Below, one piece after another: positions 6,345-20,144 of a stretch of 33,782 bases of DNA. How positions within the stretch are numbered: the stretch's first letter is position 1; every line of letters begins with the position of its first letter. Below the pieces are notes generated by a model that was given only the letters and a program-made list of their open reading frames with translations, was not told the origin of the DNA and did not search any database. Source of the stretch: Candidatus Poribacteria bacterium. GTDB taxonomy: Bacteria; Poribacteria; WGA-4E; WGA-3G. Location of the stretch: NCBI GenBank assembly GCA_022822215.1, contig JAJECD010000346.1:1-33782 (forward strand), read 5' to 3'. A program made the position numbers and the translations under genes.

Positions 6345-7261
6345 CCTCAAAACTCATCTGCCTCCTCGGTCCTACAGCGGTTGGCAAAACAGAGATAGCC
6401 ATTCAACTTGCCCAACGCCTCAACGCCGAAATTGTCTCCCTTGATTCCCGCCAAATCTATCGGCAGATGGACATCGGCACCGCCAAGCCGACTCCTGAAG
6501 AACGGCAGGCAGCACGGCATCACCTCATAGATTGTCTGGACATTTCCCAACCCTTCTCCGTTGCTGACTATCAACGCCTCGCAGACACTGCAATCACTGA
6601 CATCCGAAACAGAGGCAAGCGCGTACTGCTTGCCGGTGGTGCGGGTCTCTACTTCCGAGCGGTTGTTGATGGTTTGTTTGAAGGTCCAGGGGCGGACCCG
6701 GCGCGCCGTGAACGACTTGAGCAGGAAGCCGCGCAACACGGCGTTGATGCTCTCCACGAACGGCTCCGCGCTTGTGATCCAGTGTCTGCTGACCGAATCC
6801 ACCCGAATAACATCGTCCGGGTTGTGCGTGCCTTAGAAGTCTATGAGTTAACAGGTACGCCTCTGTCCGAACTCCAACAGCAGTGGCAGCCAGAGAAACA
6901 ACGCTATCCGTTTATCGCCTTCTGTCTGACGATGCCGCGGGCACGCCTGTATCGTCGTATTGAGCAGCGTGTCGATGTGATGCTTGCGAATGGATTGATC
7001 GCCGAAGTTGAAGCGTTATTAGCCGCTGGTTATTCCCGTGATACCGTTGCCCTCCAAAGTTTCGGCTATAGAGAGTTGATCGCGTATCTGGATGGGGAGT
7101 GTACGTATATGGAAGCCGTCTCCCAGCTAAAACAAAATACCCGTCGTTTCGCCAAACGGCAACTCACATGGTTCCGCAAAGACACGCGTCTTGAATGGAT
7201 AGATCGGGAATCGACACCAGATGTCGTTGGGAATATTTTGGAGAGAATTGGGGATACTTAG
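6341..7261 (+). CDS. miaA: tRNA dimethylallyltransferase MiaA
   Basis: MiaA transfers a dimethylallyl group from DMAPP to A37 next to the anticodon of UNN-reading tRNAs. The P-loop GPTAVGKT is at residues 10-17, followed by the family motif DSRQIY (35-40) and GTAKP. The central DRIHPNNIVRVVRALEV region and C-terminal RRFAKRQLTWFRKD are typical. The ATG at 6341 is preferred over an upstream in-frame start at 6317 because it begins the normal MiaA N terminus and overlaps the mnmA stop as ATGA, which suggests translational coupling. The length of 306 residues is normal. Confidence 0.97.
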   Translation: MTSKLICLLGPTAVGKTEIAIQLAQRLNAEIVSLDSRQIYRQMDIGTAKPTPEERQAARHHLIDCLDISQPFSVADYQRLADTAITDIRNRGKRVLLAGGAGLYFRAVVDGLFEGPGADPARRERLEQEAAQHGVDALHERLRACDPVSADRIHPNNIVRVVRALEVYELTGTPLSELQQQWQPEKQRYPFIAFCLTMPRARLYRRIEQRVDVMLANGLIAEVEALLAAGYSRDTVALQSFGYRELIAYLDGECTYMEAVSQLKQNTRRFAKRQLTWFRKDTRLEWIDRESTPDVVGNILERIGDT

Positions 7262-7328
7262 CGTTGACTTCATCGCCTACATGTGCTACACTCAATTGCG
7301 AACGCGTTGCACAAAAAGGAGAAAAAAA

Positions 7329-8942
7329 ATGAGACGTTTTGGGACACAGGGTCCCGTTAATCCTCAAGAGCACTATGTTGTGTCGCGCCCGAAGGAGATT
7401 GCCGATTTTATCAAACGTGTTGAAGAAGGGAGATATATTGTCCTCTTTGCCCCGCGTCAAACGGGCAAAACGACCTTCTTTCAACGTGCTTTAGATACAC
7501 TTGCTGTCGAAAAATCGGAATATCTCCCGATTTCGCTTAATTTTGACGTATACAAAAATACAAGTGTAGTCAATTTTTACGAGAATCTTTGTGAAGATAT
7601 CCGTGAGGAAATTCACAACACATACCAGCGACGGGGCATTCTGATTTCTGAGGCACTAAGCCAACTGTTGAGAAACGCACAACTCACAGACCACCACGCA
7701 ATGCGTAGGTTTTTTAGAAACCTTGCACGTCTGTTAAGCCCCCAAAGGTGCATCATTATCATTGACGAATTTGATGGCATCCCACAAGCTGCTCTGAGCG
7801 ATTTTCTTCACACACTCCGTCATATCTACATTGCAGGTAAACCGCGATGCCCCCACAGCGTTGGCATCATTGGTGTTAAGAGTATTGCGCAGCTCAACTA
7901 CGACCGATCTATCTCCCCCTTCAATATCCAAGACGACTTCCATCTCCCCAACTTTACGCTTGAACAAGTCCAGGAACTGTTTGGACAATATACCGCCGAA
8001 GTCGGACAAGCCTTTGTTCCAGAGGTTATAGCATCTATCCATAAGCAGACTGCTGGGCAGCCCGTCCTTGTCAACCGATTCGCCCAGATCCTTACCGAAG
8101 AACTGGACATTCCGAAGACTGAACCTATTACAATGGCACACTTTTCAGAGGCACACGATCAGCTCCTTCATGGACAGAATACTAACATTGAGCATCTGAC
8201 AACCAACATCCGCAGAAACTCGCGCTTTGAAAGCGTTCTCATGCGCATTATGGCACGTGATGAAGGTGTGGACTTCAATATGGACGATGACATTATCAGT
8301 GAACTTGCAACCTATGGCGTCATCAAAAGAGCTCCTGATGGTATGTGCGAGATTCTCAACCCAATTTATCTTTACCGCATCATGAGAACTTTTAAACCGA
8401 TCGTGAATGGGCTGGAACATGAGTACCTTCCCAGCGGTACGAGTGAAGAATTTCCCAATTATATTACACCCACCGGACGCATTGATATGGAGGCGTTACT
8501 TGACAACTTTCGAGATTTCATTGCCCGCGCAGGTTTTAGAATTCTGCAAGTGCCAGATACGCCACAAGAGTCCGTAGGCAGGCACCTCCTCCTCGCCTAT
8601 CTTGATCAGTTTGTTAAAATTGTCGGCGGCATAATGTATCTTGAGGTTCCCACTGGTCGGGGTCGGATGGACCTCATCATCGTACACAACCAGCGAAAAT
8701 ACGTTGTTGAAACAAAGGTTTGGCGCGGGGACATTCGCTATCAGTCGGGTAAAAAGCAGCTCGCAGTATATCTCAAATCTGAGGGGATGGCGGAAGGATA
8801 TTACATCGTCTTCGATCATCGGCAGGACCCAGAGCCGCGGGTAGAAGCGGAAACGATAGAGGATTTGACGGTTCGGAGTTACGTTATCCCCGTGATGCAA
8901 TATCCACCTTCAGAAATTTCCCATACCCCTAACACGCCTTGA
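7329..8942 (+). CDS. AAA-like ATPase fused to a PD-(D/E)XK nuclease-type domain
   Basis: The 537-residue product has an N-terminal AAA-like ATPase domain (AAA_35-like) with Walker A at 41-49 (APRQTGKTT) and Walker B at 141-148 (CIIIIDEFDG). A middle winged-helix-like part (about 290-360) follows. The C-terminal nuclease-type core has D448 (GRGRMD) and E461-T-K463 (VVETKVWRG). AGGAG about 10 bases before the ATG at 7329 decides the start; 36 upstream codons are open but overlap the end of miaA. The fusion is widespread in environmental bacteria, but its role is not firmly known; DNA-directed defence or mobile-element functions are plausible. It lies only 67 bases after miaA but has its own ribosome site. 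Confidence 0.8.
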   Translation: MRRFGTQGPVNPQEHYVVSRPKEIADFIKRVEEGRYIVLFAPRQTGKTTFFQRALDTLAVEKSEYLPISLNFDVYKNTSVVNFYENLCEDIREEIHNTYQRRGILISEALSQLLRNAQLTDHHAMRRFFRNLARLLSPQRCIIIIDEFDGIPQAALSDFLHTLRHIYIAGKPRCPHSVGIIGVKSIAQLNYDRSISPFNIQDDFHLPNFTLEQVQELFGQYTAEVGQAFVPEVIASIHKQTAGQPVLVNRFAQILTEELDIPKTEPITMAHFSEAHDQLLHGQNTNIEHLTTNIRRNSRFESVLMRIMARDEGVDFNMDDDIISELATYGVIKRAPDGMCEILNPIYLYRIMRTFKPIVNGLEHEYLPSGTSEEFPNYITPTGRIDMEALLDNFRDFIARAGFRILQVPDTPQESVGRHLLLAYLDQFVKIVGGIMYLEVPTGRGRMDLIIVHNQRKYVVETKVWRGDIRYQSGKKQLAVYLKSEGMAEGYYIVFDHRQDPEPRVEAETIEDLTVRSYVIPVMQYPPSEISHTPNTP

Positions 8943-9015
8943 AGTCCTTATACAAAAAGGCATCTCTGTTGTAGCACAAACTGTATGAAGTTTCAGGAAT
9001 GATTTGGTAATTGAC

Positions 9016-9144
9016 GGGCAATGAATTGCCCTACTACAAACAGAAAGCCGGTTCGTAGTAGTGCGATTTTGCGGTGTACTCGCTCCGGGGAATGCCGTTA
9101 AGGCATTCATACCGTTGATTTATGCGACGTGCATTATCGCACGT
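9016..9144. repeat. Cluster of short palindromes in the 8943-9638 gap
   Basis: No gene was found in this 696-base gap. It contains a series of stem-loops: 9016-9031 (GGGCAA/TTGCCC, loop of 4), 9090-9108 (GAATGCC/GGCATTC, loop of 5) and 9127-9144 (ACGTGC/GCACGT, loop of 6). The first is followed by CTACTAC and the nearby 9051-9062 reads GTTCGTAGTAGT; both belong to the same repeat type as 32741-32766. They look like REP-type intergenic palindromes. Confidence 0.6.
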
Positions 9145-9221
9145 TGAGAAGTTACCGAATTAAAAAATTAATCTTTATTTATGGTTATATAGATAAGCGA
9201 ACATTCGCGAAGGTCTTGTAC

Positions 9222-9356
9222 CACAAACTGTATGAGGTTTCAGAATTTAATTCGGTAATATTTATTTTCCCAGACCCGGTAGGTGCGGTTTCCTAACCGC
9301 ACCGGATACCGTTATGGAATTACCGAAATATTTATTGAAACTTCATTTAGTTTGTG
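9222..9356. repeat. MITE-like element with about 38-base inverted ends
   Basis: The left end 9222-9260 begins CACAAACTGTATGAGGTTTC. The right end 9319-9356 is its imperfect inverse, ending in AACTTCATTTAGTTTGTG. Between them sits a perfect 9-bp stem-loop at 9282-9303 (GGTGCGGTT/AACCGCACC, loop of 4). A third copy of the end sequence, in direct orientation, lies at 8975-9012. No transposase is encoded. The structure fits a small non-autonomous mobile or folded repeat element. Confidence 0.5.
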
Positions 9357-9416
9357 TCGCTGGCGAGGTTTCCTAAAAGAAATACCCCAGCAAAAACGCC
9401 TCGCCGATGCACCCTT

Positions 9417-9549
9417 CAGTCCGATAGGAATGGCATGTTTGTAGCAAATCTCCCATACTGCCTTTTAGCCCTGTAAGGGCGGTATCTATGTAGAAAAGCG
9501 TTCGTATTCCACAGTCAAGCCCCGTAGGGGCGGTATCTCTATAGCAAAT
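9417..9549. repeat. Three degenerate direct repeats at about 50-base spacing
   Basis: Units at 9417-9449, 9466-9498 and 9517-9549 align with each other. The second and third each hold a small palindrome (9468-9480 and 9519-9531, GCCCYGTARGGGC) followed by GGTATCT and then TAG-AAA-like ends. The first unit is more diverged. The array stops 15 bases before the hsdM promoter. Confidence 0.5.
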
Positions 9550-9564
9550 CGTCAAATTTTGGAT

Positions 9565-9593
9565 TTGACAAACAGCCTCAAATACCCTATAAT
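9565..9593 (+). promoter_or_regulatory. Consensus promoter of the restriction-modification genes
   Basis: TTGACA (9565-9570), exactly 17 bases, then TATAAT (9588-9593). Both boxes match the sigma-70 consensus perfectly. The expected leader to the hsdM ATG at 9639 is about 40 bases. Confidence 0.8.
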
Positions 9594-9638
9594 CATATCA
9601 ATTTTCCCAAATAAAATATCAGGCAGGCACAAATCAGA

Positions 9639-11900
9639 ATGAACCAAACCGACCTTATCCACATCGGAGAACAAAAAGGCTATATTCAACTCCTTAACGA
9701 AGGAACAACAATCCACTACATCACTCCCAATAAAAAATACAGATTTACCGACCCCGAAGAACAAGTCCGTGCAAGATTTTACGTCGAGTTAATCGAGCAT
9801 TTCCAATACTCCCAAAACCGAATAGATTTAGAAGTCCAGGTTCCGCGCAGAACGCCTTCCGATCTCGCCGATATTGTCGTCTTTCAAGATGATGACAAGA
9901 AAGATCCCTTCATTGTGGTTGAATGCAAAAAGGACGGAATCTCTGAGGCAGAATTCAAGCAAGCGATTGAGCAGGCTTTTGGCAACTGTAACTCTTTAGG
10001 CGGATATTACACCGCTGTCATTGCTGGTAATACGCGGCGTTCTTTTGATGTCAAGAACTATAAGCCGGGTGAACGTTCCGAAAATATCATCGCCGATCCA
10101 CCTATTGGATACGGCAAAGTTCAGGAATGGCGATTTCTGAAAGGTGTCCCGAATTCGGAACTTACTGTCATCGAAAGGAGCGATCTCATCCGCGTGCTTG
10201 AGAAATGCCACGATACGCTTTGGCAAGGCGGAAAACTTGCACCAACCGACGCGTTTGATGAACTCGCCAAAATTCTCTTTATCAAAATCCGAGATGAAAA
10301 GAAGGCAAGACGGGACGGTGAACCTTACGATTTTCAGATCAAAACGCGTGAAAAACCAAAATCCGTTGCGAATCGCATTAACGCACTCTATCAGGAAGCA
10401 AAAGCACAAGACCCGGAAGTCTTTACTGAAAATATTGAAGTTGATGCAAGTCTCCTATTTTCCGTTGTCAATCATTTGCAGGGGATTAGTCTCAATCAAA
10501 CCGATTTGGACGTGAAGGGTGTTGCCTTTGAACGATTCTTAGGTAATTTTTTCAAAGGCGAGATTGGACAGTTTTTCACACCGCGTGAAGTGGTTGAGTT
10601 CATGGTTGATATGGTTACACCCCACCATGAAAATTTAATCCTTGATCCCGCCTGCGGTTCGGGCGGTTTTTTGTTGCATGCCATGGATTACATCCGAAAA
10701 CAGGCATCTGACTACTACGAGGAGGGAAGCCGCGAACACTATACCCACTGGCACGATTTTGCCGAGAAGCGACTCTTCGGAATTGAAATTAATGACTCAA
10801 TTGCCCGCGTTGCCAAGATGAACATGATTATCCACGATGATGGGCATAGCAACGTCATTAGCAACGATGCCCTCGTCGATTTCGACAACCTCTACAACCA
10901 GCACAGGGAGTTTGAAGAAGATAAATTTGATGTAATCCTTACCAATCCACCTTTCGGAGCATCCATCAAACAATCCGAATTACCGTATCTTAGAAATTAC
11001 GAACTCAGCAAAGGAAATGCCTCTCAAAAGACTGAAATTCTGTTTCTTGAACGCTGTTTCGATTTCCTTAAGTGGGAAACCGGAAAACTTGCGATTATTC
11101 TACCCGATGGTATCTTGACCAATTCCTCACTACAATACGTCCGTGATTACATTGAACGCCACTTTCAAATCCTCGCTGTCGTCTCACTGCCACAGATTGC
11201 CTTCTCACATTACGGTGCGGGTGTGAAAACGTCCATCTTATTTCTCCGAAAGTTTTCAAAACAGGAGTATGAACGCTATCAGGCCGCCATCAATCAAATT
11301 ACGAAAAGGAACGAAGCGGTCTATATGCCTCAGATCACGACACTTGAGGATGAGCGTAAAGCACTTATTGCGAAAGGTTCTCCAAGACAGATAATTACGA
11401 TAGAAACTTTTAGACCAAGATTCCAAGAGAGCTTAGACAATATTGATACCTTAAATCAGAAACTTGACAAAGCACCAACGAAAAAGGTTCAAACGCTCCG
11501 CTCCTTTTTCTTCCCAGAAATGGAGCCTACACCTATCACAGAATTTGAATTGTTTGACACGCAAACCGCACGGGCGGAACTTAAGAAACAGACAGGCGAG
11601 TTGAACGCATTGGAGAAAGAATACAAAGCAGCGTTTAAAGGAGCAGTCGAACCGGAGTGGGAGAGCCAAATCAAGTCGGAATACAAAGAAAAAATTGACG
11701 CTGTTAAAGAGGAATGGGCAGATAAGAACGCAGCGGACATCCTCGAATGGGTTCGAGAAAACGCCAATCATCCCATCTTTATGGCAATCGCTGAACGTAT
11801 CGGCTACGACGCAACCGGACGCAAAGACTCAATTAATGACCTTGACATGATTTATGAAGAATATCAAAAGTTCACCGAAAACCCAGATTTTTTCGGGTAA
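9639..11900 (+). CDS. hsdM: N6-adenine methyltransferase (HsdM type) with N-terminal nuclease-like domain
   Basis: The 753-residue product is much longer than a normal HsdM (about 500). Residues 1-140 resemble the HsdR N-terminal nuclease fold (HSDR_N_2 type), with a PD-(D/E)XK core of D78 (SDLADIVVF) and E95-C-K97 (VVECKK). From about 190 comes the HsdM part: FTPREVVEFM (313-322), SAM-binding motif DPACGSGGF (336-344) and catalytic NPPFG (436-440), so it should methylate adenine. The C terminus (about 640-700) is charged and helical, coiled-coil-like. With hsdS next to it and no separate hsdR in the window, this may be a self-contained cut-and-methylate subunit, comparable with BcgI-type systems. 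Cleavage activity is inferred. Confidence 0.9.
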   Translation: MNQTDLIHIGEQKGYIQLLNEGTTIHYITPNKKYRFTDPEEQVRARFYVELIEHFQYSQNRIDLEVQVPRRTPSDLADIVVFQDDDKKDPFIVVECKKDGISEAEFKQAIEQAFGNCNSLGGYYTAVIAGNTRRSFDVKNYKPGERSENIIADPPIGYGKVQEWRFLKGVPNSELTVIERSDLIRVLEKCHDTLWQGGKLAPTDAFDELAKILFIKIRDEKKARRDGEPYDFQIKTREKPKSVANRINALYQEAKAQDPEVFTENIEVDASLLFSVVNHLQGISLNQTDLDVKGVAFERFLGNFFKGEIGQFFTPREVVEFMVDMVTPHHENLILDPACGSGGFLLHAMDYIRKQASDYYEEGSREHYTHWHDFAEKRLFGIEINDSIARVAKMNMIIHDDGHSNVISNDALVDFDNLYNQHREFEEDKFDVILTNPPFGASIKQSELPYLRNYELSKGNASQKTEILFLERCFDFLKWETGKLAIILPDGILTNSSLQYVRDYIERHFQILAVVSLPQIAFSHYGAGVKTSILFLRKFSKQEYERYQAAINQITKRNEAVYMPQITTLEDERKALIAKGSPRQIITIETFRPRFQESLDNIDTLNQKLDKAPTKKVQTLRSFFFPEMEPTPITEFELFDTQTARAELKKQTGELNALEKEYKAAFKGAVEPEWESQIKSEYKEKIDAVKEEWADKNAADILEWVRENANHPIFMAIAERIGYDATGRKDSINDLDMIYEEYQKFTENPDFFG

Positions 11901-11941
11901 GCCCCGATAGAGAAAATCAAATTTTTCTCACCTATCGGGGC
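11901..11941. repeat. Long stem-loop between hsdM and hsdS
   Basis: A perfect 10-bp stem, GCCCCGATAG (11901-11910) with CTATCGGGGC (11932-11941), starts directly after the hsdM stop. The inner part can pair further (AGAAAA with TTTTCT). GATATTTT follows, which is not a full T-run, so it could be a weak terminator, a processing site or an inserted palindromic element. It lies inside the open frame upstream of the first hsdS ATG. Confidence 0.7.
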
Positions 11942-12052
11942 GATATTTTAGGTAGGCTGGATCCAAATTACATAAGAAATATTTCCTACGTCAATAACAT
12001 TAACACGCGTTATCCCTTAGTTCCACTTGGTAGTTTACTCACAGAACCACCG

Positions 12053-13282
12053 ATGTACGGTGCGAATGAGATAGCAGTAAACGGCGATCCTCAAACGGAT
12101 GTGCGATATATTCGGATTACCGACATTGATGATCATGGAAACCTCCGAGATGATGATTGGAAAACAGCAAAGAGAATTGACAAAAAATATGCTCTTGCTC
12201 GGAATGATCTTTTGTTTGCCAGAAGTGGAACAGTAGGTAAAGCATTCATCCACAAAAGAGAGGATGGAGAAGCTATTTTTGCGGGATATTTGATTCGTTT
12301 CAGATTTGATGAAAAGCGAATAAATCCTCACTTTGTGTTTTACTATACTCTCTTAAGTCGATACATGCTTTGGGTCCGGGCAATACAAAGACCATCAGTA
12401 CAAGCTAATATCAACTCAAAAGAATTTAAGGCGTTTGAAATCCCTCTCCCGCCCCCAAGTATTCAAAATCACATCGTTACCATTATGCGATCCGCCTCTA
12501 CTGAGAAAAAGCAGAAAGAGCAAGAAGCAGCCGCGCTTTTAGATTCAATTGATGATTATGTGTTGACGGAGTTGGGAATTGAGATGCCACAAGAGAAAGA
12601 AAATAGCATTAAAAACCGTGTTTTTACTGCAACGCTCGGCGAAGTTTCTGGACGACGATTTGATCCAGAAATATATTATCAGGTTTACTCGTTGCATACG
12701 AAGTCTTACCCGATGGAAAGATTTCAAGATTGTGTTCTCATTAACCCATCGACTTCCTTTGAGGGATATGAATTGGACACGAATGTGACCTTTGTTCCAA
12801 TGGAAAAAGTTTCAGCGAAATATGGAGAGGCTGATCTATCTCTATGCAAGATGGTCGCCGAGGCAAAAGGATATACGAGGTTTAGAGACAACGATCTGAT
12901 TTGGGCAAAAATCACGCCGTGTATGGAAAATGGGAAGTCTGCTGTTGTTGATAATTTGGAAGGTGGGGTAGGATGTGGTTCAACTGAATTTCACGTTTTC
13001 CGGGCATTGGAAGGGATAAATATTCACTATATTCACGCCCTGTTACGTATGAAATCTTTGCGGGAGCATGCCGTGCTGTATTTCACAGGTTCCGCTGGAC
13101 AGCAGAGAGTTTCGAGTGAGTTCTTCAAAGAGTTAATGGTTCCGAAACCATCACTTGAAAAACAAACTGAGATTGCCAATTATATCACTCATGCTCGTAA
13201 TCAGGCTAAACAACTACAACAGGAAGCCGATGCTATTGTAGAGCAGGCGAAAGAGAGAGTTGAGCACATTTTGTTGCAATAG
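12053..13282 (+). CDS. hsdS: Type I-like specificity subunit HsdS; true start unclear
   Basis: HsdS reads the target sequence for the methyltransferase/nuclease. Two half-repeats are visible. TRD1 runs from RYIRITDIDDHGN through GYLIRFRFDE to FEIPLPPPSIQ. TRD2 starts at RRFDPEIYY and ends in LMVPKPSLEKQTEI, each with a following helical stretch. The first ATG in frame is 12053 (409 residues). However, homology-like sequence continues upstream in the same frame (GRLDPNYI and YPLVPLGSLLTEPP), and the frame is open back to 11858. No ATG, GTG or TTG occurs in that stretch; only a CTG at 11957 and some ATT codons do. The protein may start at a rare codon, or an older start may have been lost when the hairpin at 11901-11941 arose. 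Confidence 0.85.
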   Translation: MYGANEIAVNGDPQTDVRYIRITDIDDHGNLRDDDWKTAKRIDKKYALARNDLLFARSGTVGKAFIHKREDGEAIFAGYLIRFRFDEKRINPHFVFYYTLLSRYMLWVRAIQRPSVQANINSKEFKAFEIPLPPPSIQNHIVTIMRSASTEKKQKEQEAAALLDSIDDYVLTELGIEMPQEKENSIKNRVFTATLGEVSGRRFDPEIYYQVYSLHTKSYPMERFQDCVLINPSTSFEGYELDTNVTFVPMEKVSAKYGEADLSLCKMVAEAKGYTRFRDNDLIWAKITPCMENGKSAVVDNLEGGVGCGSTEFHVFRALEGINIHYIHALLRMKSLREHAVLYFTGSAGQQRVSSEFFKELMVPKPSLEKQTEIANYITHARNQAKQLQQEADAIVEQAKERVEHILLQ

Positions 13283-13343
13283 TTCTAACCCAAGTTGCTA
13301 CTCACAAGTTTTGAAAGTTCAACAAAATGTTTCAGGTAATTTA

Positions 13344-13362
13344 GTACTCCAGTGGAGTACTG
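13344..13362. repeat. Perfect 19-base palindrome after hsdS
   Basis: AGTACTCCA, one centre base, then TGGAGTACT. It lies 61 bases after the hsdS stop in a 486-base gap (13283-13768) with no gene. It may act as a transcript end or as a repeat element. There is no T-run after it. Confidence 0.5.
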
Positions 13363-13405
13363 TGTGCCTCATGAAATTAATTGCGAATCAGATTTTCAAA
13401 TTTGG

Positions 13406-13435
13406 TTGACATCTACTGATGAGATATGCTATCCT
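13406..13435 (+). promoter_or_regulatory. Candidate promoter in the hsdS-TIR gap
   Basis: TTGACA (13406-13411), 18 bases, then TATCCT (13430-13435). It would start a transcript about 325 bases before the first TIR gene and read through the palindrome at 13541-13561. No small ORF or known RNA was recognised in that stretch. Confidence 0.4.
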
Positions 13436-13540
13436 TAGGTATAGTAATCCACATTGTTGAGAACGTAAGGGGATAGACCGTCTGAATCGCGGATTACGCT
13501 CCAGCGAAGCGATATGTCTATAGCCCTGAGACTCTGCACC

Positions 13541-13561
13541 GGCGAGGTTAGAAACCTCGCC
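13541..13561. repeat. Palindrome related to the one at 9282-9303
   Basis: GGCGAGGTT, loop AGA, AACCTCGCC: a perfect 9-bp stem. Read on the minus strand with its flanks (CCCGGTAGGCGAGGTTTC) it matches the plus-strand element at 9275-9306 (CCCGGTAGGTGCGGTTTC). The two are therefore copies of one dispersed repeat in opposite orientation. Confidence 0.6.
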
Positions 13562-13657
13562 TACCGGGAGAGGTAAAATCTTCCGACGTGGTTGGTTGAA
13601 ATGTCAACTTATTTTTATAATTCCCCATAAATAATATTAACATTTGTGTAAAAAAAC

Positions 13658-13686
13658 TTGACAAATGACTTAAAAGCTGCTATAAT
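13658..13686 (+). promoter_or_regulatory. Consensus promoter of the TIR gene pair
   Basis: TTGACA (13658-13663), 17 bases, then TATAAT (13681-13686), a perfect sigma-70 match. The leader to the ATG at 13769 is about 75 bases, with GGAGG just before the start. Confidence 0.8.
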
Positions 13687-13768
13687 AATTTTTTAGAATA
13701 CCTACGGAGTCATGAGCTGATACTTCTAAATATAAAGCATACTTCTTGAAAAGAATAAAAGGAGGATC

Positions 13769-14260
13769 ATGAACGCAGAAAAACGATCTTTGTCTGAACC
13801 AACCGTTACAAGTAGCAGCGAAGTGTTCATCGTGCATGGACATGATCGGGCGGTTAAATCCGAAGTTGCTCGATTTGTAGACAATTCAGGGTTAGAAGCG
13901 GTTATACTTGATGAAAAACCCGGTGGCGGACTAACGATTATTGAGAAATTTGAGAAATACGCGAATAATGCAGCTTTTGCGATTGTCTTGCTTACACCTG
14001 ATGATGTTGGGGCCTCAAAAGATAAAAGGGACGAACTCAAACCCCGAGCGCGTCAGAATGTTATCTTTGAAATTGGTTATTTCTTTAAAGGGTTGGGTCG
14101 CGGTCGAGTTTGTGCTATGTCTAAAGAAGAAGTGGAATTCCCATCCGATCTTAATGGAGTAAGTTATGTTTTCCTTGATCCTAACTCTGGCTGGAAACTA
14201 ACATTATTGCAGGAAATGAAAGAAGCTGGACTTCCTGTTGATGGTAGTAAATTGGTGTAG
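13769..14260 (+). CDS. Stand-alone TIR-like protein (CAP12/Pycsar-effector type)
   Basis: The 163-residue product is almost wholly one TIR-like nucleotide-binding domain of the PF10137 type. Recognisable motifs are VFIVHGHD (19-26), GLEAVILDEKP (41-51), GLTIIEKFEKY (54-64) with E59 as the probable catalytic glutamate, LLTPDD (74-79), and RARQNVIFEIGYFFKGLGR (93-111). Family members act as NAD+-degrading effectors in antiphage systems such as Pycsar and CBASS, killing or arresting infected cells. No cyclase gene or second-messenger sensor domain is visible here. AGGAGG lies 7-8 bases before the ATG. It is followed 130 bases later by a second TIR-like gene with a long repeat region, and lies just after the restriction system. 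NADase activity is inferred from family membership. Confidence 0.88.
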   Translation: MNAEKRSLSEPTVTSSSEVFIVHGHDRAVKSEVARFVDNSGLEAVILDEKPGGGLTIIEKFEKYANNAAFAIVLLTPDDVGASKDKRDELKPRARQNVIFEIGYFFKGLGRGRVCAMSKEEVEFPSDLNGVSYVFLDPNSGWKLTLLQEMKEAGLPVDGSKLV

Positions 14261-14390
14261 AAATGGAGGAAAGCTTGACACTTACTTACACTGGGCTGAA
14301 TAAATCTTGTAGAATAAGCTGCTTAAGTTGTCAGCCTGATTACGGGTTGCGAAGCATAAGTCAAATATCTTGAAAGTGGAGGAAAGGTTA

Positions 14391-14570
14391 ATGAATAGTT
14401 GGAGAGATCCTTTTAGGAATTCCTATATGGCTGAGTTAAATAGTTGGAGAGATCCTTTTAGGAATTCCTATATGGCTGAGTTGAATAGTTGGAGAGATCC
14501 TTTTAGGAATTCCTATGCAGCTGAATTAAATGGTTGGAGAGATCCTTTTAGGAATTCCTATACAGCTGAG
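14391..14570 (+). repeat. Four tandem 45-bp repeats inside the TIR gene
   Basis: Copies at 14391-14435, 14436-14480, 14481-14525 and 14526-14570 differ at only a few bases each. Being 45 bp long they add or remove 15 residues without breaking the frame. Such near-identity points to recent expansion by slippage or recombination. Confidence 0.95.
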
Positions 14571-15683
14571 CTGAATCGAATGGTAAATCCTATCAGAGAA
14601 CTTCGTCCCCAAATGGAACTAACAAGGGATTCCGTGAAGGGCTTTCATGAACACGTGGCTGAGCTGAATCGAATGGTAAATCCTATCAGGGAACTTCATA
14701 CCGAAAAAAATTACATAGATCAAATAAGGCATGTGGTGGATGATTCCAGGAGATTTCACGTAGAATTGGGGCGAGCAGTAAATCCTATCAGAGATTCCCG
14801 TGTCCACATGGATGAACTGAGGCGACTAAGTGATCCGGTCAAAGATTATCGTGTCCGGATGGACGAAATGGAGCGTGTGGTAAATCCTATCAGGGAACTT
14901 TATACCGAAAAAAATTACATAGATCAAATAAGGCATGTGGTGGATGATTCCAGGAGATTTCACGTAGAATTAGGGCGAGCAGTAAATCCTATCAGAGAAC
15001 TTCGCGTCCAAATGGAACTAGCGAAGGATCCCTTTAAAGAGTTTCGTGACCAAATGGGGCAATTCGATAAATCTATTGTTAATTTCACTCGTATTTTTGA
15101 CGAAATAGTAGAGTCTGCCATCCCTTTTACTTCCTCCCGCTCTGTTGGTATTGATGTATTCATTGAACCTGAGTTCCCTGAGATAGGTAAACAGCCAGTC
15201 AGAATTCACTATCCAGATAATTCTGGCCGTTCTTTCGGCGAGAAAGTGTTTATCGTGTGCGGGGGGGACGAAGGAGCAAAACAAACCTTGGCTAGATGGA
15301 TCGAAAAATTAGGCTTAGAGGCGGTTATAATTAACGAAAAACCAAGCGGAGCACTAACGAGGATTGAGAAGGTTGAAAGGTACACGGATGATATAACCTT
15401 CACAGTTGCTCTGCTTACTCCTGACGATGAGGGTAAACCAAAGAGCGAATTAGGTAAATCCAACTCCCGCGCAAGCCAGGATGTTATCTTGCAACTTGGT
15501 CTTCTGATCGGTAAGTACGGTCGTGACCAGATATGCTTCCTCTACAAAGGAGAATTAGAATTGCCGTCAAGTATGAATGGCATAAACCTCATACCGATGG
15601 ATGCTAATGGTGGATGGGTACTAAATTTAATACAAGAAATAGAAGACGCGGGGCTGTCCATTGATATAAATAAGGCAATATGA
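14391..15683 (+). CDS. Repeat-array protein with C-terminal TIR-like domain
   Basis: The 430-residue product has two parts. Residues 1 to about 223 are some 14 tandem units of 15-17 residues. Units 1-4 are nearly identical (SWRDPFRNSYMAEL); later ones carry the core NPIREL or DPxKxxR and end in E-L or D-E-L. A linker follows, then a TIR-like domain at about 284-430, paralogous to the preceding protein: KVFIVCGGDEG, GLEAVIINEKP, TRIEKVERY, LLTPDDEGK and SRASQDVILQLG. The catalytic-type Glu in RIEKVE is kept, but HGHD has become CGGD and the FEIG glutamate is a glutamine, so activity may be altered. The start at 14391 has GGAGG 8 bases upstream; an upstream ATG at 14370 lacks this. The array may drive oligomerisation or sense a trigger (inference). 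Confidence 0.85.
   Translation: MNSWRDPFRNSYMAELNSWRDPFRNSYMAELNSWRDPFRNSYAAELNGWRDPFRNSYTAELNRMVNPIRELRPQMELTRDSVKGFHEHVAELNRMVNPIRELHTEKNYIDQIRHVVDDSRRFHVELGRAVNPIRDSRVHMDELRRLSDPVKDYRVRMDEMERVVNPIRELYTEKNYIDQIRHVVDDSRRFHVELGRAVNPIRELRVQMELAKDPFKEFRDQMGQFDKSIVNFTRIFDEIVESAIPFTSSRSVGIDVFIEPEFPEIGKQPVRIHYPDNSGRSFGEKVFIVCGGDEGAKQTLARWIEKLGLEAVIINEKPSGALTRIEKVERYTDDITFTVALLTPDDEGKPKSELGKSNSRASQDVILQLGLLIGKYGRDQICFLYKGELELPSSMNGINLIPMDANGGWVLNLIQEIEDAGLSIDINKAI
14675..14998 (+). repeat. Duplicated 120-bp block inside the TIR gene
   Basis: The segment 14675-14794 recurs at 14879-14998 (offset 204) with very few changes. Both encode the stretch VNPIREL, TEKNYIDQIRHVVDDSRRF and HVELGRAVNPIR. This is a second layer of duplication on top of the short units. 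Confidence 0.9.
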
Positions 15684-15691
15684 AGTAATGA

Positions 15692-15757
15692 ATGAATCAA
15701 ACCAACTTCATTCGCATCGCAGGGTAAAAAGGCTATGTTGAACTCTTCAATGTATGA
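15692..15757 (+). pseudogene. Decayed N-terminal fragment of an hsdM-type gene
   Basis: Translated from 15692 the frame reads MNQTNFIRIAG, stop, KGYVELFNV, stop. This matches the start of the intact HsdM-type protein at 9639 (MNQTDLIHIGEQKGYIQLLN) with a stop in place of the QE region. Weak similarity may continue to about 15840 in another frame. The rest of the gene is missing. It is a relic of a second restriction-modification locus just after the TIR pair. Confidence 0.65.
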
Positions 15758-15848
15758 GCAGTTATCAGGAAATCACCATCCAAATTTAACTCACCCGCGA
15801 CGAACCAGACTGAAATCTATTCTCACCAAACGTAGAAATAATACACAC

Positions 15849-16175
15849 CTATTTCTCGCGTTCTTCAATAATCGCACGGCTAAACTCATTATCCTCAGCG
15901 CGGATGCCGTGACGTGCCATACTCTTGCGAAGTTCCTCAAGCGGCATAAGTTGTATATCGGCGATGCCGAGATGTTCACGCATTTTCTGAAGAATTTCTG
16001 CCTCAGATGGCTTGTGGGTGGTATCAAGGTCGGACAGTCTGTCCACTGTCTGGCGATTTTTCGGACCCACAGATATCGACGCATCAACGAGCTGCGAAAG
16101 TTGCAGTCGCATCTCCGCAACGGCTTTCTCTAACCGAGCTAATCTTTCTGTTAATGTTTCAAGCGTCTCTGTCAT
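15849..16175 (-). CDS. Small protein of unknown function with N-terminal coiled coil
   Basis: The 108-residue product starts MTETLETLTERLARLEKAVA, a leucine-heptad stretch that predicts a coiled coil to about residue 33. A polar linker follows, then a charged C terminus (MPLEELRKSMARHGI and DNEFSRAIIEEREK). I do not recognise the family. It is taken as real because AAGGAG lies 11 bases before the ATG and a good promoter lies at 16257-16286. The size and build would suit an antitoxin or a small DNA- or protein-binding regulator, but no toxin gene is next to it. Its overlapping opposite-strand ORFs show no protein-like features. Confidence 0.6.
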   Translation of the reverse strand: MTETLETLTERLARLEKAVAEMRLQLSQLVDASISVGPKNRQTVDRLSDLDTTHKPSEAEILQKMREHLGIADIQLMPLEELRKSMARHGIRAEDNEFSRAIIEEREK

Positions 16176-16256
16176 GAGAACCTCACTCCTTACGTAACCG
16201 CAAAGTTGGTCTTATTATAGTCTACCTATCCAAAGCAGCATATCTCCACTAAAAGT

Positions 16257-16286
16257 ATTATAGCACAGACAAAGCGTCCGGGTCAA
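16257..16286 (-). promoter_or_regulatory. Promoter of the small coiled-coil gene
   Basis: On the minus strand: TTGACC (16281-16286), 18 bases, then TATAAT (16257-16262). A second TATAAT occurs downstream at 16214-16219. It separates this gene from the recQ operon, which ends at 16301. Confidence 0.65.
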
Positions 16287-16300
16287 AAAGAATCCCGATT

Positions 16301-19093
16301 TCATTTACCTCGTTTTTCTGTAATTCCTTGCTCTTCGCAATATTCCCGAATAATCGGCAAAAAAGCATCAGCATATTTTTCACATTTCGCAGGACTTACG
16401 CGATCAATCTGCATAAACGCTTCTTCAGTTTGCGGAAAATAAGTCGCCATCTCTTTCAGGGTCTTGTCCCAGAAGATGACAAACGCCGAAACCCCTTCCT
16501 CCTCAGCAATCGTTTTCCGCTTCTCTCGAAGTCGCTCAAAAAGCTCCAAGTCGTATTCATTCGGTTCCGGAGAGGTTGTTTCAGAAGTATCTGGGATGTC
16601 AGTTCTGTTCTCTCCTGAATCTGTTTCCTGTTTCTTGAAGTGTTTACGGATAATCGGCAAAAAGACATCAACGTATTTTTCACATTTCGTGGGGCCCACA
16701 CCAGGCATCTGCTTAAAGGATTCTTCAGATGTCGGAAAATAGGTCGCCATCGCTTGCAGTGCTGTATCGTGAAAAACTTCGTAAGGTAGTACGTCCGCCA
16801 CCTCAGCGATCTTGTCTCGTTCAGTCCGAAGTAATTCAAAGAGTTTCGGAGAATATTCAGGCGATACTTCGGATACCGTTCGGTTTGCCGACTCCACCGA
16901 AAATCCCCAAAATTGATCGCCTCCGTTAAGCACTCCCCAACCTTTTTCTGTCAAGCGGAGACTGCCGTGTCGTGCCTCGCGTTCAAGGAGTTTGTGTTGG
17001 AGAAATTGAAGAGACAGATGTCGCCATTCTGATTTGCTGTAATCTGTGCCAATCCCGTGTGTGGAAAGCCGGTCATGTCCGTTCTCAATAATCTTTTTCC
17101 GTTGTGAACCCCGTAGGACATCAATAATATAGGCTTCTCCAAACATCTGTTTTGTCCGAACGACACAAGAGAAGAATTTTTGTGCCAGAGTCGTCAGGTC
17201 AATCCGTTCCGTTTCCGACTTGCAGCAGTTGTCACACATGCCACAATTATCGTGCTCGTACTGTTCTCCGAAGTAGGCTAACAATACTTTTCGACGGCAT
17301 GCGAGTGAAGTTGCCCACGAAACAAGCGTCTGTGATCGTTCTTGTCGTCCTTCCCTTTCGGATGGTGCTCCTTGTTCAATAAAGTGGTTGATAGTGTCTA
17401 CGTCCCCATAACTGAATAGCAGTAGACAGTCTGCGGGAAGCCCATCACGCCCGCTGCGGCCAATCTCCTGATAGTAGGATTCCGGCTCCTTCGGCAACCC
17501 AGCGTGTAATACAAAACGGACATCCGCTTTATCAATACCCATCCCGAAAGCGATTGTAGCGACGATGACCTGAATATCCCCGTTGATGAAAGCGTCCTGA
17601 TTGTGTTTACGGGTTGCATCATCCAGCTCTCCATGATACGGAAGTACAGAAATCCGTCTGGCAGTTAGATCCCGGCACAATGATTTAACTTGTTTTATCG
17701 TTTGACAATAGATAATACCGGATTCTTGGCGATGCTTATAAAGAAACGCAAGGGTCTGATCAAGCAACTCAATCTTCGGTTCAACAGCAATAAAGAGGTT
17801 TTTCCGGTCAAAACTGCCTATGAACTCGCTTCCCTCATCAAATTTAAGCAACTTTTTGATGTCCTTTTGAACGCGGGGAGTCGCAGTTGCTGTTAAGGCA
17901 ACACAAACAGCACTTTGAAATCGCTCCCGAATGGAAACCAGTTGTCGGTATTCCGGACGAAAATCGTGTCCCCACTCCGAAATACAATGTGCTTCATCAA
18001 TCGCGAGGCAGGCGACATCTGATTCATCAAGCATCAGAAGTATTTCAGATCGGACGAGCGTTTCAGGGGCAACGTAAAGAAGTTTCATTTTCCCCTGTTT
18101 GACACGCTGCATTATCGTTTTCTGTTCTGAATAGTTGAGAGTGCTGTTGAGGAAGGCTGCGTGGATGCTTCTGTTTTGCAGTTGCATCACCTGATCCTGC
18201 ATGAGCGAAATCAGCGGCGAGACAACTACCGTCATGCCATCAAAAATGAGTGCAGGCAATTGATAACAGAGCGACTTGCCACCGCCTGTTGGTAACACCA
18301 CGAGGGCATCTTGCTTTTTGAGGATGTGGTCAATGATGTCCTTCTGGAATAGACGAAACGCTTCATGGCCGAACACGTTTTGGAGAATCTCTAACGGGTT
18401 TTGTAGAGGCGTTGGGTGTGGGCGCGGTTTTTCTTCATCAAGTGGTTTTTCTTCTTCCTGTTTTCCAGCTTCGAGGAACCACCCGGAGAGTTGCGCGTAG
18501 TGTCGTTCTTCAGCATCGGGTTCGTCTTTCGGTCGCCATCGATGTGCTAACGATACACGTAGGAGTGTTCCAGCAGGGATTGTCTCAACCGGTTCTTGGA
18601 AACCGACGAAAGTGAGCGTGCAACTACCATTTTCGGTAGCGTAGCGATACCGTATGCGTCTGCCTTCTGTATCGCGGATGAGCGGCTGATCCGGTCTCCA
18701 AAACGTTGTACTGTAGTTCGGTACATCATCCCCGGTAGAAATGTAAAGCGAGCCGTTACCTGTGGTTTTCAATAAGCCTTCATAGAGTTCTTGGGGAGAC
18801 CCAGTTTTCGGTGGCATTAAGAGTTCAATAGCACTCACTAAGTCTTTCGGAGCTTTCGCGGGGTGTAGAAGCCTCTTTTTGTGAACAACGATATTTTCGT
18901 TATGTGGTGGAATTAGTGAAATTTCAGGTTTAGCCGCTATCTCCCAGATTTCACCGACGTTATATTCTCGGTTCGCACCGTCATGCGGATCAGCGTTAAA
19001 TGGAATGAGTCGAACACTTTTCCCTGTCTCCGTAATGCCACCGATGCATGCCCCACCACCCATCCGAGTTTTCGCAACAATAAGTACTCTCAC
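16301..19093 (-). CDS. RecQ-family DNA helicase with extra N-terminal domain and two HRDC domains
   Basis: The 930-residue product is far longer than housekeeping RecQ (about 610). Residues 1 to about 205 form an extra domain (RVLIVAKTRMGGGACIGGI, then VGEIWEI) that resembles the dual-OB (DuOB) domain. The helicase core has PTGGGKS (268-274), DEAH (366-369), the RecQ aromatic loop SEWGHDFRPEY, and GFGM-type motif VI as QEIGRSGRDG. The zinc site follows (CRRK and CGMCDNCC), then a winged helix and two HRDC domains, each with the pattern MATYFP...C-EKY-D-FLPIIR. It unwinds DNA 3'-5' by family rule. The start codon is GTG, overlapping the stop of the upstream DUF488 gene as GTGA. This points to translational coupling and a joint role. 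Confidence 0.9.
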   Translation of the reverse strand: MRVLIVAKTRMGGGACIGGITETGKSVRLIPFNADPHDGANREYNVGEIWEIAAKPEISLIPPHNENIVVHKKRLLHPAKAPKDLVSAIELLMPPKTGSPQELYEGLLKTTGNGSLYISTGDDVPNYSTTFWRPDQPLIRDTEGRRIRYRYATENGSCTLTFVGFQEPVETIPAGTLLRVSLAHRWRPKDEPDAEERHYAQLSGWFLEAGKQEEEKPLDEEKPRPHPTPLQNPLEILQNVFGHEAFRLFQKDIIDHILKKQDALVVLPTGGGKSLCYQLPALIFDGMTVVVSPLISLMQDQVMQLQNRSIHAAFLNSTLNYSEQKTIMQRVKQGKMKLLYVAPETLVRSEILLMLDESDVACLAIDEAHCISEWGHDFRPEYRQLVSIRERFQSAVCVALTATATPRVQKDIKKLLKFDEGSEFIGSFDRKNLFIAVEPKIELLDQTLAFLYKHRQESGIIYCQTIKQVKSLCRDLTARRISVLPYHGELDDATRKHNQDAFINGDIQVIVATIAFGMGIDKADVRFVLHAGLPKEPESYYQEIGRSGRDGLPADCLLLFSYGDVDTINHFIEQGAPSEREGRQERSQTLVSWATSLACRRKVLLAYFGEQYEHDNCGMCDNCCKSETERIDLTTLAQKFFSCVVRTKQMFGEAYIIDVLRGSQRKKIIENGHDRLSTHGIGTDYSKSEWRHLSLQFLQHKLLEREARHGSLRLTEKGWGVLNGGDQFWGFSVESANRTVSEVSPEYSPKLFELLRTERDKIAEVADVLPYEVFHDTALQAMATYFPTSEESFKQMPGVGPTKCEKYVDVFLPIIRKHFKKQETDSGENRTDIPDTSETTSPEPNEYDLELFERLREKRKTIAEEEGVSAFVIFWDKTLKEMATYFPQTEEAFMQIDRVSPAKCEKYADAFLPIIREYCEEQGITEKRGK

Positions 19094-19578
19094 GGTAAAA
19101 TATCTTCGACCTCCAAATTAAATGTTTTCGCTAACGTATCCGCTACCAATGAGCGGTGACATGCTTCAGGGGCAGTTTCCACACAAAAGAGCGCAACGAC
19201 TTTGGTATCGGATTCCAGTTCATCCAAAAGACTTTGCGGTTCAAACGCAGTGAGGCATTCGGTGTGGTAGGCTTCGATAAATGCTTCTCCCAGAGCAGTG
19301 CGTTTTCGTTTAGCGGTTTTCGTCGCTTTGTCTGCTGCTGCTTGCTTTTCTCGAACGGCTCTTGTTGGTCCCAAGTCTTTGCGATGAATGTATCGGATAC
19401 CGAGTTCTGCAAGGCGTGCTTGCAGTCGCATACTGTTGGCGAATGCATAAGTTGCACCGCGGACACCACGGCGACTACGGATATCGCAGAATGTGTCAAC
19501 CGCAGCGTCGCATAAAGCCTGAAAAAAACTGGACTCGTCGAATCCGTACACGCCAATGGTAACAATTTTGATTTGCAT
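19090..19578 (-). CDS. DUF488 protein, second gene of the recQ operon
   Basis: The 162-residue product shows the DUF488 layout: a TIGVYGF-like first strand, DIRSRRG in the early loop, GIRYIHRKDLG, and the C-terminal Cys-His site FCVETAPEACHRSLVAD (C-x6-7-CHR). DUF488 proteins have no settled function; the conserved Cys, His and Arg suggest a catalytic or phosphate-binding pocket. It starts 11 bases after the first DUF488 gene ends and overlaps recQ by 4 bases, so the three genes are expressed together. It differs from its neighbour by a basic insert at about residues 75-95 (KAAADK, TKTAKRKR-like). Confidence 0.88.
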   Translation of the reverse strand: MQIKIVTIGVYGFDESSFFQALCDAAVDTFCDIRSRRGVRGATYAFANSMRLQARLAELGIRYIHRKDLGPTRAVREKQAAADKATKTAKRKRTALGEAFIEAYHTECLTAFEPQSLLDELESDTKVVALFCVETAPEACHRSLVADTLAKTFNLEVEDILP

Positions 19579-19589
19579 AGTGGATTAAA

Positions 19590-20144
19590 TTAAGGGTATT
19601 TTTTTCGAGAATGAAATGTCTCGTCACCAAACATCGACAACTGCCCGCCCGTCAGCCGTTCAATGACCTGTGCCTGCGTCAATTGCTCACTATTTTCGTC
19701 GATATGCATGACCGCTATATCTTCATTCGTGAGGGTTACACCGATAAGTTTACAACGGTGGCATTCTTCCGGTTTCCCCTCGCTGCACATCAGAACAATG
19801 GATTGCTGTTGTGAGAAGGCAGTCCGAAGGCGTTGGATACCAGACTGGTAGGACTCCGTGGCTTTAACCTTTTCATAATCGACTTTCCCGTTGACGTAGC
19901 ACGCTTCATCGTCCGGTCTACCACCGAGTGTATCCCCCATGAAGATATAGCGGATCCCGTGCTGTTCCAGTGTATTTGCGAGTGGTGCTTTCGAGAATTC
20001 CGGTTTGTAGCGAGAGTAGGGTGCTGAACGAACATCAATGAGATAAGCAATCTTGTGGGCGTGTAGTAACGCAATGAGTTCCTCTATCGAACGGCTCCCA
20101 TAGCCTATCGTGTAAATTGGAGTGAGGGCGGATGAGTGTTCCAT
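19590..20144 (-). CDS. DUF488 protein, first gene of the recQ operon
   Basis: The 184-residue product is a full-length DUF488 protein: IYTIGYGSRSIEEL at the N terminus, LIDVRSAPYSRYKPEFSK, HGIRYIFMGDTLGGRP, and MCSEGKPEECHRCKLIG carrying the C-x-CHR site. The C-terminal tail is QLSMFGDE and basic residues. It is distantly paralogous to the next gene. No clear Shine-Dalgarno precedes the ATG. Being first, it sets transcription for the operon, but no promoter stands out upstream. A joint role with the RecQ helicase in DNA repair or defence is inferred from the operon only. Confidence 0.88.
   Translation of the reverse strand: MEHSSALTPIYTIGYGSRSIEELIALLHAHKIAYLIDVRSAPYSRYKPEFSKAPLANTLEQHGIRYIFMGDTLGGRPDDEACYVNGKVDYEKVKATESYQSGIQRLRTAFSQQQSIVLMCSEGKPEECHRCKLIGVTLTNEDIAVMHIDENSEQLTQAQVIERLTGGQLSMFGDETFHSRKKYP

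What the first reader, a model, noticed from the sequence alone, without database searches (positions are those of the whole stretch)
16301..20144. DUF488-DUF488-RecQ operon with an extra N-terminal domain on RecQ
Two different DUF488 proteins and a 930-residue RecQ with a dual-OB-like N terminus and two HRDC domains are tightly linked (11-base gap, GTGA overlap). The added domain and the DUF488 pair set it apart from housekeeping RecQ. Lying next to restriction and TIR genes, it may be a defence or DNA-damage module.
Basis: partly seen in the sequence, partly recalled or inferred. Interest (0 to 1): 0.65.

Follow-up and report, generated by a model that had tools for sequence, protein, structure and literature searches.

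The report
RecQ-fused DUF488/DuOB defence candidate module
In sponge-associated Poribacteria, three neighbouring genes (two small enzymes with an intact catalytic-type cysteine motif, and a DNA-unwinding RecQ helicase with an added DNA-binding-type head) form a travelling unit that sits in a chromosomal slot where other species carry virus-defence systems, so it is probably a helicase-armed version of a predicted but untested antiviral system.

Summary
Two different DUF488 proteins (both keep C-x-E…C-H-R) and a 930-aa RecQ with an N-terminal DuOB domain and two HRDC domains form one minus-strand operon (11-base gap, GTGA overlap). The link is not chance. All 47 DuOB loci found in 85 Poribacteria genomes have two DUF488 genes adjacent, as do 22 of 28 inspected Chloroflexota loci and several plasmids. 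DUF488+DUF488+DuOB is the set PADLOC lists as phage-defence candidate PDC-M45, so the conserved unit is the triad. RecQ is a later, single-origin fusion of canonical RecQ onto DuOB. In Poribacteria the operon is common but dispensable (32/38 genomes of the genus, 7/18 of a sister genus). It was lost by deletion, with scars seen in two genomes. It sits in a variable slot between housekeeping genes, where relatives instead carry CBASS, short Argonaute, FokI restriction-modification (R-M), Type I-like R-M or PDC-M19. The mechanism (DuOB-RecQ opens DNA, the DUF488 enzymes chemically process ends or strands) is inferred. Novelty: a RecQ-armed variant of a predicted system.

The parts
19590..20144 (-). 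DUF488-1 (184 aa), first gene of the operon; CSEGKPEECHR active-site motif; matches PADLOC PDC-M45B
   Evidence: PDC-M45B 182.7 bits; D37, R39, C120, C128, H129, R130 invariant in 47/47 rows
19090..19578 (-). DUF488-2 (162 aa), second gene; CVETAPEACHR motif; weak match to PDC-M45C/M19A
   Evidence: PDC-M45C 42.5 bits; D32, R34, C132, E134, C140, H141, R142 invariant in 47/47 rows; AF2 pLDDT 88
16301..19093 (-). DuOB-RecQ fusion (930 aa, GTG start, GTGA overlap with DUF488-2)
   Evidence: E. coli RecQ 1oyw 426 bits over 234-725
18479..19093 (-). DuOB (dual OB) N-terminal domain, residues 1-205
   Evidence: AF2 pLDDT 85.5; best PDB folds HIN-200 tandem-OB DNA sensors, E 7e-5, TM about 0.4
16916..18403 (-). 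canonical RecQ helicase core, zinc-binding and RQC domains (about residues 231-726)
16301..16861 (-). C-terminal tail with two HRDC domains (residues 747-821 and 847-921); copy number 0-3 in relatives
7221..16133 (+). genes beside the operon in the variable slot: AAA-NERD ATPase, Type I-like MTase and HsdS, two TIR genes; not part of the operon
   Evidence: R-M present in only 3 of 22 readable triad-bearing slots

Best explanation
This is a RecQ-fused version of the three-gene DUF488-DUF488-DuOB module (PADLOC phage-defence candidate PDC-M45), carried in a defence-exchange slot of Poribacteria chromosomes. Shown: the triad is a conserved unit across Poribacteria, Chloroflexota, Rhodothermus and proteobacterial plasmids; both DUF488 proteins keep the predicted catalytic residues; the RecQ part keeps the canonical helicase, zinc and RQC domains; the unit is accessory, is lost by deletion, and shares its slot with known defence systems. 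Inferred: the DuOB head binds DNA, the RecQ motor opens forks or ends of invading DNA from 3' to 5', and the two DUF488 enzymes act through the cysteine as a pair on the exposed ends, bases or sugars (an end-processing or modification reaction), which blocks the invader's replication or marks it. Which chemistry the DUF488 pair performs, and what triggers it, is unknown.
For: 47/47 DuOB loci in Poribacteria have two adjacent DUF488 genes. 22 of 28 inspected Chloroflexota loci have exactly two DUF488 genes near DuOB, all with CxE..CHR. Rhodothermus pRMAR01: DUF488, DUF488, DuOB next to cas1-cas2. Proteobacterial plasmids carry DuOB+DUF488+DUF488 or DuOB+DUF488+DUF4326, in several cases beside CBASS, Csm6/Cas1 or a NotI-family R-M. 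PADLOC M45A/B/C match the Chloroflexota triad at 298/221/204 bits and the window's DUF488-1 at 183. Slot occupants in triad-lacking Poribacteria: CBASS SMODS+4TM, short Ago with REase-TIR partner, FokI R-M, Type I-like R-M, PDC-M19, PDC-M48B; recognised defence genes in 9/16 triad-lacking versus 3/22 triad-bearing slots, Fisher p = 0.012. Accessory: 32/38 and 7/18; deletion scar in G007 keeping the last ~22 RecQ codons; truncated DUF488-2 in G017. Against one close relative the triad evolves faster (omega 0.08-0.38) than most flanking genes (0.02-0.13).
Against: No experiment. PDC-M45 is a candidate only, and the window DuOB is not itself recognised by the PDC-M45A models. Present in most of the genus, mostly at one syntenic place, unlike many patchy defence systems. 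It is the only RQC-bearing RecQ in the family, so it may do ordinary RecQ work. No copy found in phage records. dN/dS stays below 1, and its excess for DuOB rests on a low dS. The slot comparison has small counts, mixes assemblies of different quality, and neighbouring species are not independent.
Confidence: 0.58

Rival explanations
1. A resident DNA-repair complex: DuOB-RecQ is simply the RecQ of these bacteria, and the DUF488 pair cleans damaged DNA ends (for example blocked 3' or 5' termini) before recombination or fork restart.
For: Helicase is a canonical RecQ orthologue; all fused RecQs form one clade next to unfused Chloroflexota RecQs; only RQC RecQ in the genome and family; common in the genus, flanked by miaA/mnmA housekeeping genes.
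Against: 17 of 59 family genomes lack it and have no other RQC RecQ, so it is dispensable; deletion scars; the DUF488-DUF488-DuOB core exists without RecQ in most Chloroflexota loci and on plasmids; slot shared with defence systems.
Confidence: 0.27
2. A plasmid or mobile-element maintenance or anti-restriction module (protecting element ends), later domesticated on the chromosome.
For: Triad on small plasmids of Citrobacter, Klebsiella, Acinetobacter and Moraxella, in some close to ParA, relaxase or toxin-antitoxin genes.
Against: In Chloroflexota and Poribacteria it is chromosomal without obvious mobility genes; plasmid copies also lie beside CBASS, CRISPR and R-M genes.
Confidence: 0.09
3. 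A chance local neighbourhood: DUF488 genes and RecQ merely next to one another.
For: None found.
Against: 47/47 and 22/28 adjacency across phyla, fusion of RecQ to DuOB, translational overlap.
Confidence: 0.01

Closest known systems
PADLOC candidate system PDC-M45 (A = DuOB-type protein, B and C = DUF488)
   Same: Same three components side by side; window DUF488-1 matches M45B at 183 bits, DUF488-2 matches M45C at 42.5 bits; the Chloroflexota triad of L121 scores 298/221/204 bits on A/B/C.
   Different: Window DuOB is not recognised by the M45A models, is fused to a full RecQ, and the gene order is B-C-A rather than A-B-C as in the Chloroflexota example. PDC-M45 is a prediction; no test was found in the papers held.
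DUF488/DUF4326 clade of the rhodanese-phosphatase superfamily (Burroughs and Aravind 2023, NAR Genom Bioinform lqad029; existence confirmed by citation, content recalled, not readable here)
   Same: Recalled prediction: cysteine enzymes for nucleic-acid-end processing in conflict systems. DuOB and DUF488-N3a are Pfam names; plasmid triads indeed pair DUF488 with DUF4326.
   Different: I could not read whether the RecQ-DuOB fusion is described there.
Bacterial RecQ (TIGR01389; E. coli RecQ, PDB 1oyw)
   Same: Helicase, zinc and RQC domains and one or more HRDC; 738 bits versus cut-off 640.
   Different: 200-aa DuOB head, operon with two DUF488 genes, variable HRDC number, accessory distribution.
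Defence RecQ-like helicases DpdF (Dpd) and PsyrT
   Same: RecQ-type helicase in a defence setting (one search hits).
   Different: DpdF equivalog NF041063 scores 205 versus cut-off 550; the higher PADLOC DpdF hits look like generic RecQ similarity, and no dpd genes were seen among the window genes examined.
HIN-200 domains (AIM2, IFI16, p202)
   Same: Tandem-OB arrangement; best solved-structure matches of the DuOB model.
   Different: About 10% identity and TM-score about 0.4: similar fold layout only, no claim of descent.

Membership tests
PADLOC PDC-M45 | component B (DUF488) | tested here: met
   DUF488-1 182.7 bits, E 1.5e-54
PADLOC PDC-M45 | component C (second DUF488) | tested here: inconclusive
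   DUF488-2 42.5 bits, E 1.3e-11; it scores slightly better on PDC-M19A, 52.9 bits
PADLOC PDC-M45 | component A (DuOB-type protein) by its own model | tested here: not met
   no PADLOC hit for residues 1-215 at E<=1, although Pfam DuOB, which also covers M45A-type proteins, matches at 95.7 bits. Hence filed as a variant, not a plain member
PADLOC PDC-M45 | shown phage protection | not testable with these tools
   no experiment possible; no paper naming PDC-M45 found
Pfam DuOB (PF22557) | match above gathering cut-off over the full domain | tested here: met
   95.7 bits versus 27, profile 1-210/210; AF2 model mostly beta with tandem-OB fold matches
Pfam DUF488 (PF04343), active form | profile match and conserved C-x-E...C-H-R with upstream D and R | tested here: met
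   81.3 and 52.9 bits; both cysteines, the C-H-R His/Arg and the upstream D and R invariant in 47/47 rows of each; the Glu is 0.98 in DUF488-1 and 1.00 in DUF488-2 (a few rows are duplicate genomes)
Canonical RecQ (TIGR01389) | score over equivalog cut-off; helicase, zinc, RQC and HRDC domains | tested here: met
   738.1 versus 640.2 bits; alignment to 1oyw
DpdF / Dpd system | NF041063 equivalog score and dpd genes | tested here: not met
   204.8 versus cut-off 550; no Dpd partners among the window genes scanned
CRISPR, CBASS or DISARM | signature genes in the operon | tested here: not met
   none among the three genes

The most novel reading that the evidence does not exclude
A new kind of antiviral machine in which a RecQ motor with a tandem-OB DNA-binding head delivers opened DNA to a pair of cysteine-dependent DUF488 enzymes that carry out a previously undescribed chemical modification of DNA ends or strands.
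Probability: 0.25. Interest if true: 0.85.

Novelty: new variant of a known kind. Interest (0 to 1): 0.57.

Why it matters
DUF488 is a widespread domain of unknown function. A tightly bound unit of two DUF488 enzymes, a DNA-binding-type head and a well-understood RecQ motor gives a concrete, testable handle on its chemistry. The Poribacteria slot, where the same place holds this unit or CBASS, Argonaute, FokI R-M or PDC-M19, gives independent genomic support that the untested PDC-M45 candidate is a defence system, and shows that a housekeeping helicase can be captured into it.

Tried and rejected
Membership in Dpd: rejected on the NCBIfam cut-off. Defence inferred only from the adjacent R-M/TIR genes: rejected as the main argument, because these genes are an insertion seen in few triad-bearing relatives. 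Operon as strict core gene set: rejected. Several independent RecQ-DuOB fusions: rejected by the RecQ tree (all fused forms in one 100/100 clade, with one unfused and one split form inside). One separate RecQ-like neighbour, L146, lies on a long branch and its placement is unsure. Dependence of the triad on canonical RecQ: RecQ over cut-off in 10 of 22 triad-bearing Chloroflexota versus 72/400 overall (p = 0.002; 7 of 19 and p = 0.03 without fused ones), but related genomes are not independent, so not used. Viral copies: none with DUF488-2 in viral contigs by the close-relative method, none with DuOB in phage records. DUF488-2 fold search gave only weak matches (no E<=0.001). The key 2023 paper is not in the library.
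Full report
1. The observation. The three minus-strand ORFs are as described: DUF488-1 (20144..19590), DUF488-2 (19578..19090) and RecQ (19093..16301), with an 11-base gap and a GTGA overlap. Pfam finds DUF488 in both small proteins, and in the 930-residue protein DuOB at 1-205, helicase, zinc, RQC and two HRDC domains. The protein passes the RecQ equivalog cut-off and aligns with E. coli RecQ (1oyw) at 426 bits over residues 234-725.

2. Host and distribution. Related loci with titles are Candidatus Poribacteria, plus one Caldilineae contig. In 85 Poribacteria genomes DuOB occurs in 47; every one has two DUF488 genes adjacent to it. In the window's genus 32 of 38 genomes carry it, in the sister genus g20 7 of 18. 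In the whole family the RQC domain is found only where DuOB-RecQ is found, so genomes without the operon have no RQC-bearing RecQ at all and evidently live without it. A second RecQ-like helicase of about 620 aa, in which no RQC domain was detected, exists in the window genome and in nearly all genus genomes examined.

3. The conserved unit is DUF488 + DUF488 + DuOB. In 400 Chloroflexota genomes DuOB is over the cut-off in 42. Of 28 loci inspected, 22 have exactly two DUF488 genes within about 1.8 kb, all with CxE...CHR; in most of these DuOB is a separate gene of about 230 aa. The six without a pair include partial or divergent DuOB matches. The same trio is on Rhodothermus marinus pRMAR01 next to cas1-cas2, and on Rhodovastum, Agrobacterium (next to CBASS) and Allochromatium (Cas1, Csx16, Csm6) plasmids. 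A DuOB-DUF488-DUF4326 form is on Citrobacter, Klebsiella (with a NotI-family R-M) and Acinetobacter plasmids. No phage record has DuOB.

4. PADLOC lists this trio as candidate PDC-M45: the Chloroflexota genes of L121 score 298 (A, DuOB), 221 (B) and 204 bits (C). The window's DUF488-1 scores 183 on B, DUF488-2 only 42.5 on C, and its DuOB is not hit by A. I therefore call the window a variant, not a plain member.

5. RecQ was captured once. In a tree of 54 RecQ helicase regions all DuOB-fused proteins of Poribacteria and Chloroflexota fall in one 100/100 clade, next to unfused Chloroflexota RecQs. One unfused (L159) and one split form (L147) lie inside that clade. L146 shows DUF488, DUF488, DuOB and a different, long-branched RecQ as four genes, possibly a second association. 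HRDC number varies from 0 to 3.

6. Catalytic potential. In 47 aligned rows of each DUF488 the D/R pair and both cysteines, His and Arg of the C-H-R motif are invariant (a few rows are duplicate genomes). The DuOB model (pLDDT 85.5) is mostly beta, and its best solved relatives are HIN-200 tandem-OB DNA sensors (E 7e-5, TM about 0.4), which supports a tandem-OB, DNA-binding-type head but not descent. The DUF488-2 model (pLDDT 88) has only weak fold matches.

7. The slot. In most relatives the operon lies between SpoIIE/GNAT/PhyH genes (or, in the window's closest relatives, a Zn-peptidase) and an AAA-NERD gene, miaA and mnmA. In genomes without DuOB-RecQ the same slot holds a CBASS SMODS cyclase with a 4TM effector (L215, L234), a short Argonaute with a REase-TIR partner (L228), FokI R-M (L218; methylases in L233), Type I-like methylase and HsdS (L216, L219, L228; methylase only in L226 and L227), PDC-M19 (L216, L222) or PDC-M48B (L219). 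Often DUF488-1 alone remains; in the DUF488-1 tree such singletons are intermixed with triad copies, pointing to repeated loss. Genome G007 has a clean deletion joining upstream intergenic DNA to the last ~22 codons of RecQ, and G017 keeps only the first 56 residues of DUF488-2. Recognised defence genes fill 9 of 16 triad-lacking but only 3 of 22 readable triad-bearing slots (my tally from the map and the family searches; p = 0.012), as expected if the triad is one of several alternative occupants. Counts are small, some triad-lacking slots are cut by contig ends, and species are related.

8. Evolutionary rate. Between the window and its nearest relative L040, dN/dS is 0.08-0.38 for the triad and 0.02-0.13 for flanking genes. 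This is one pair only, and the DuOB value rests on a low dS, so it is weak support.

9. Mechanism. Shown: unit, conserved residues, canonical helicase domains, accessory behaviour, defence slot. Inferred: DuOB binds DNA, RecQ opens it, and the DUF488 pair chemically processes the exposed ends or strands so that invading DNA fails. From memory, Burroughs and Aravind 2023 predicted DNA-end processing for DUF488-type enzymes in conflict systems; only the citation could be checked. The chief rival is a repair complex. It explains the canonical RecQ, but not the RecQ-free triads, the dispensability or the slot.

10. Verdict. Observation confirmed; interpretation partly supported, with defence now favoured (0.58) over repair (0.27). 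New variant of a predicted, untested kind.

Noticed in passing
window 7221-16301; L215, L216, L218, L219, L222, L228, L234: The interval between the operon and AAA-NERD/miaA is a defence-exchange hotspot of Poribacteria (CBASS, short Ago with REase-TIR, FokI R-M, Type I-like R-M, PDC-M19, PDC-M48B).
   Followed up: yes
L225 (G007) 12560-12760; L212 (G017) 4488-4655: Deletion scars: the empty site keeps about 22 RecQ C-terminal codons; G017 keeps a 56-residue DUF488-2 stub.
   Followed up: yes
window 9639-13282 versus L040 13218-16484: Methylase 93% identical but HsdS only about 58% identical to the nearest relative, suggesting target-recognition swapping; the 753-aa methylase has an HSDR_N_2 nuclease-type domain, and no separate HsdR was identified among the window genes scanned.
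   Followed up: partly
window 14394-14570: Tandem repeat (45-base unit, 3.9 copies, in frame, 15 aa each) at the start of the second TIR gene (PDC-S35-like).
   Followed up: no
window 13769-14260: First TIR gene lacks the N-terminal ~110 residues of the PDC-S35 models; may be truncated or misread.
   Followed up: no
L140 834-3503: SpoVR gene with an apparent LAGLIDADG intein in a Chloroflexota genome next to a triad.
   Followed up: no
L122, L124 and L125 (two adjacent DuOB genes): Tandem DuOB duplications in some Chloroflexota triads.
   Followed up: no
RecQ C-termini of L045, L055, L151 versus L058, L057: HRDC copy number varies between 0 and 3 among close relatives, suggesting repeat gain and loss.
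   Followed up: partly
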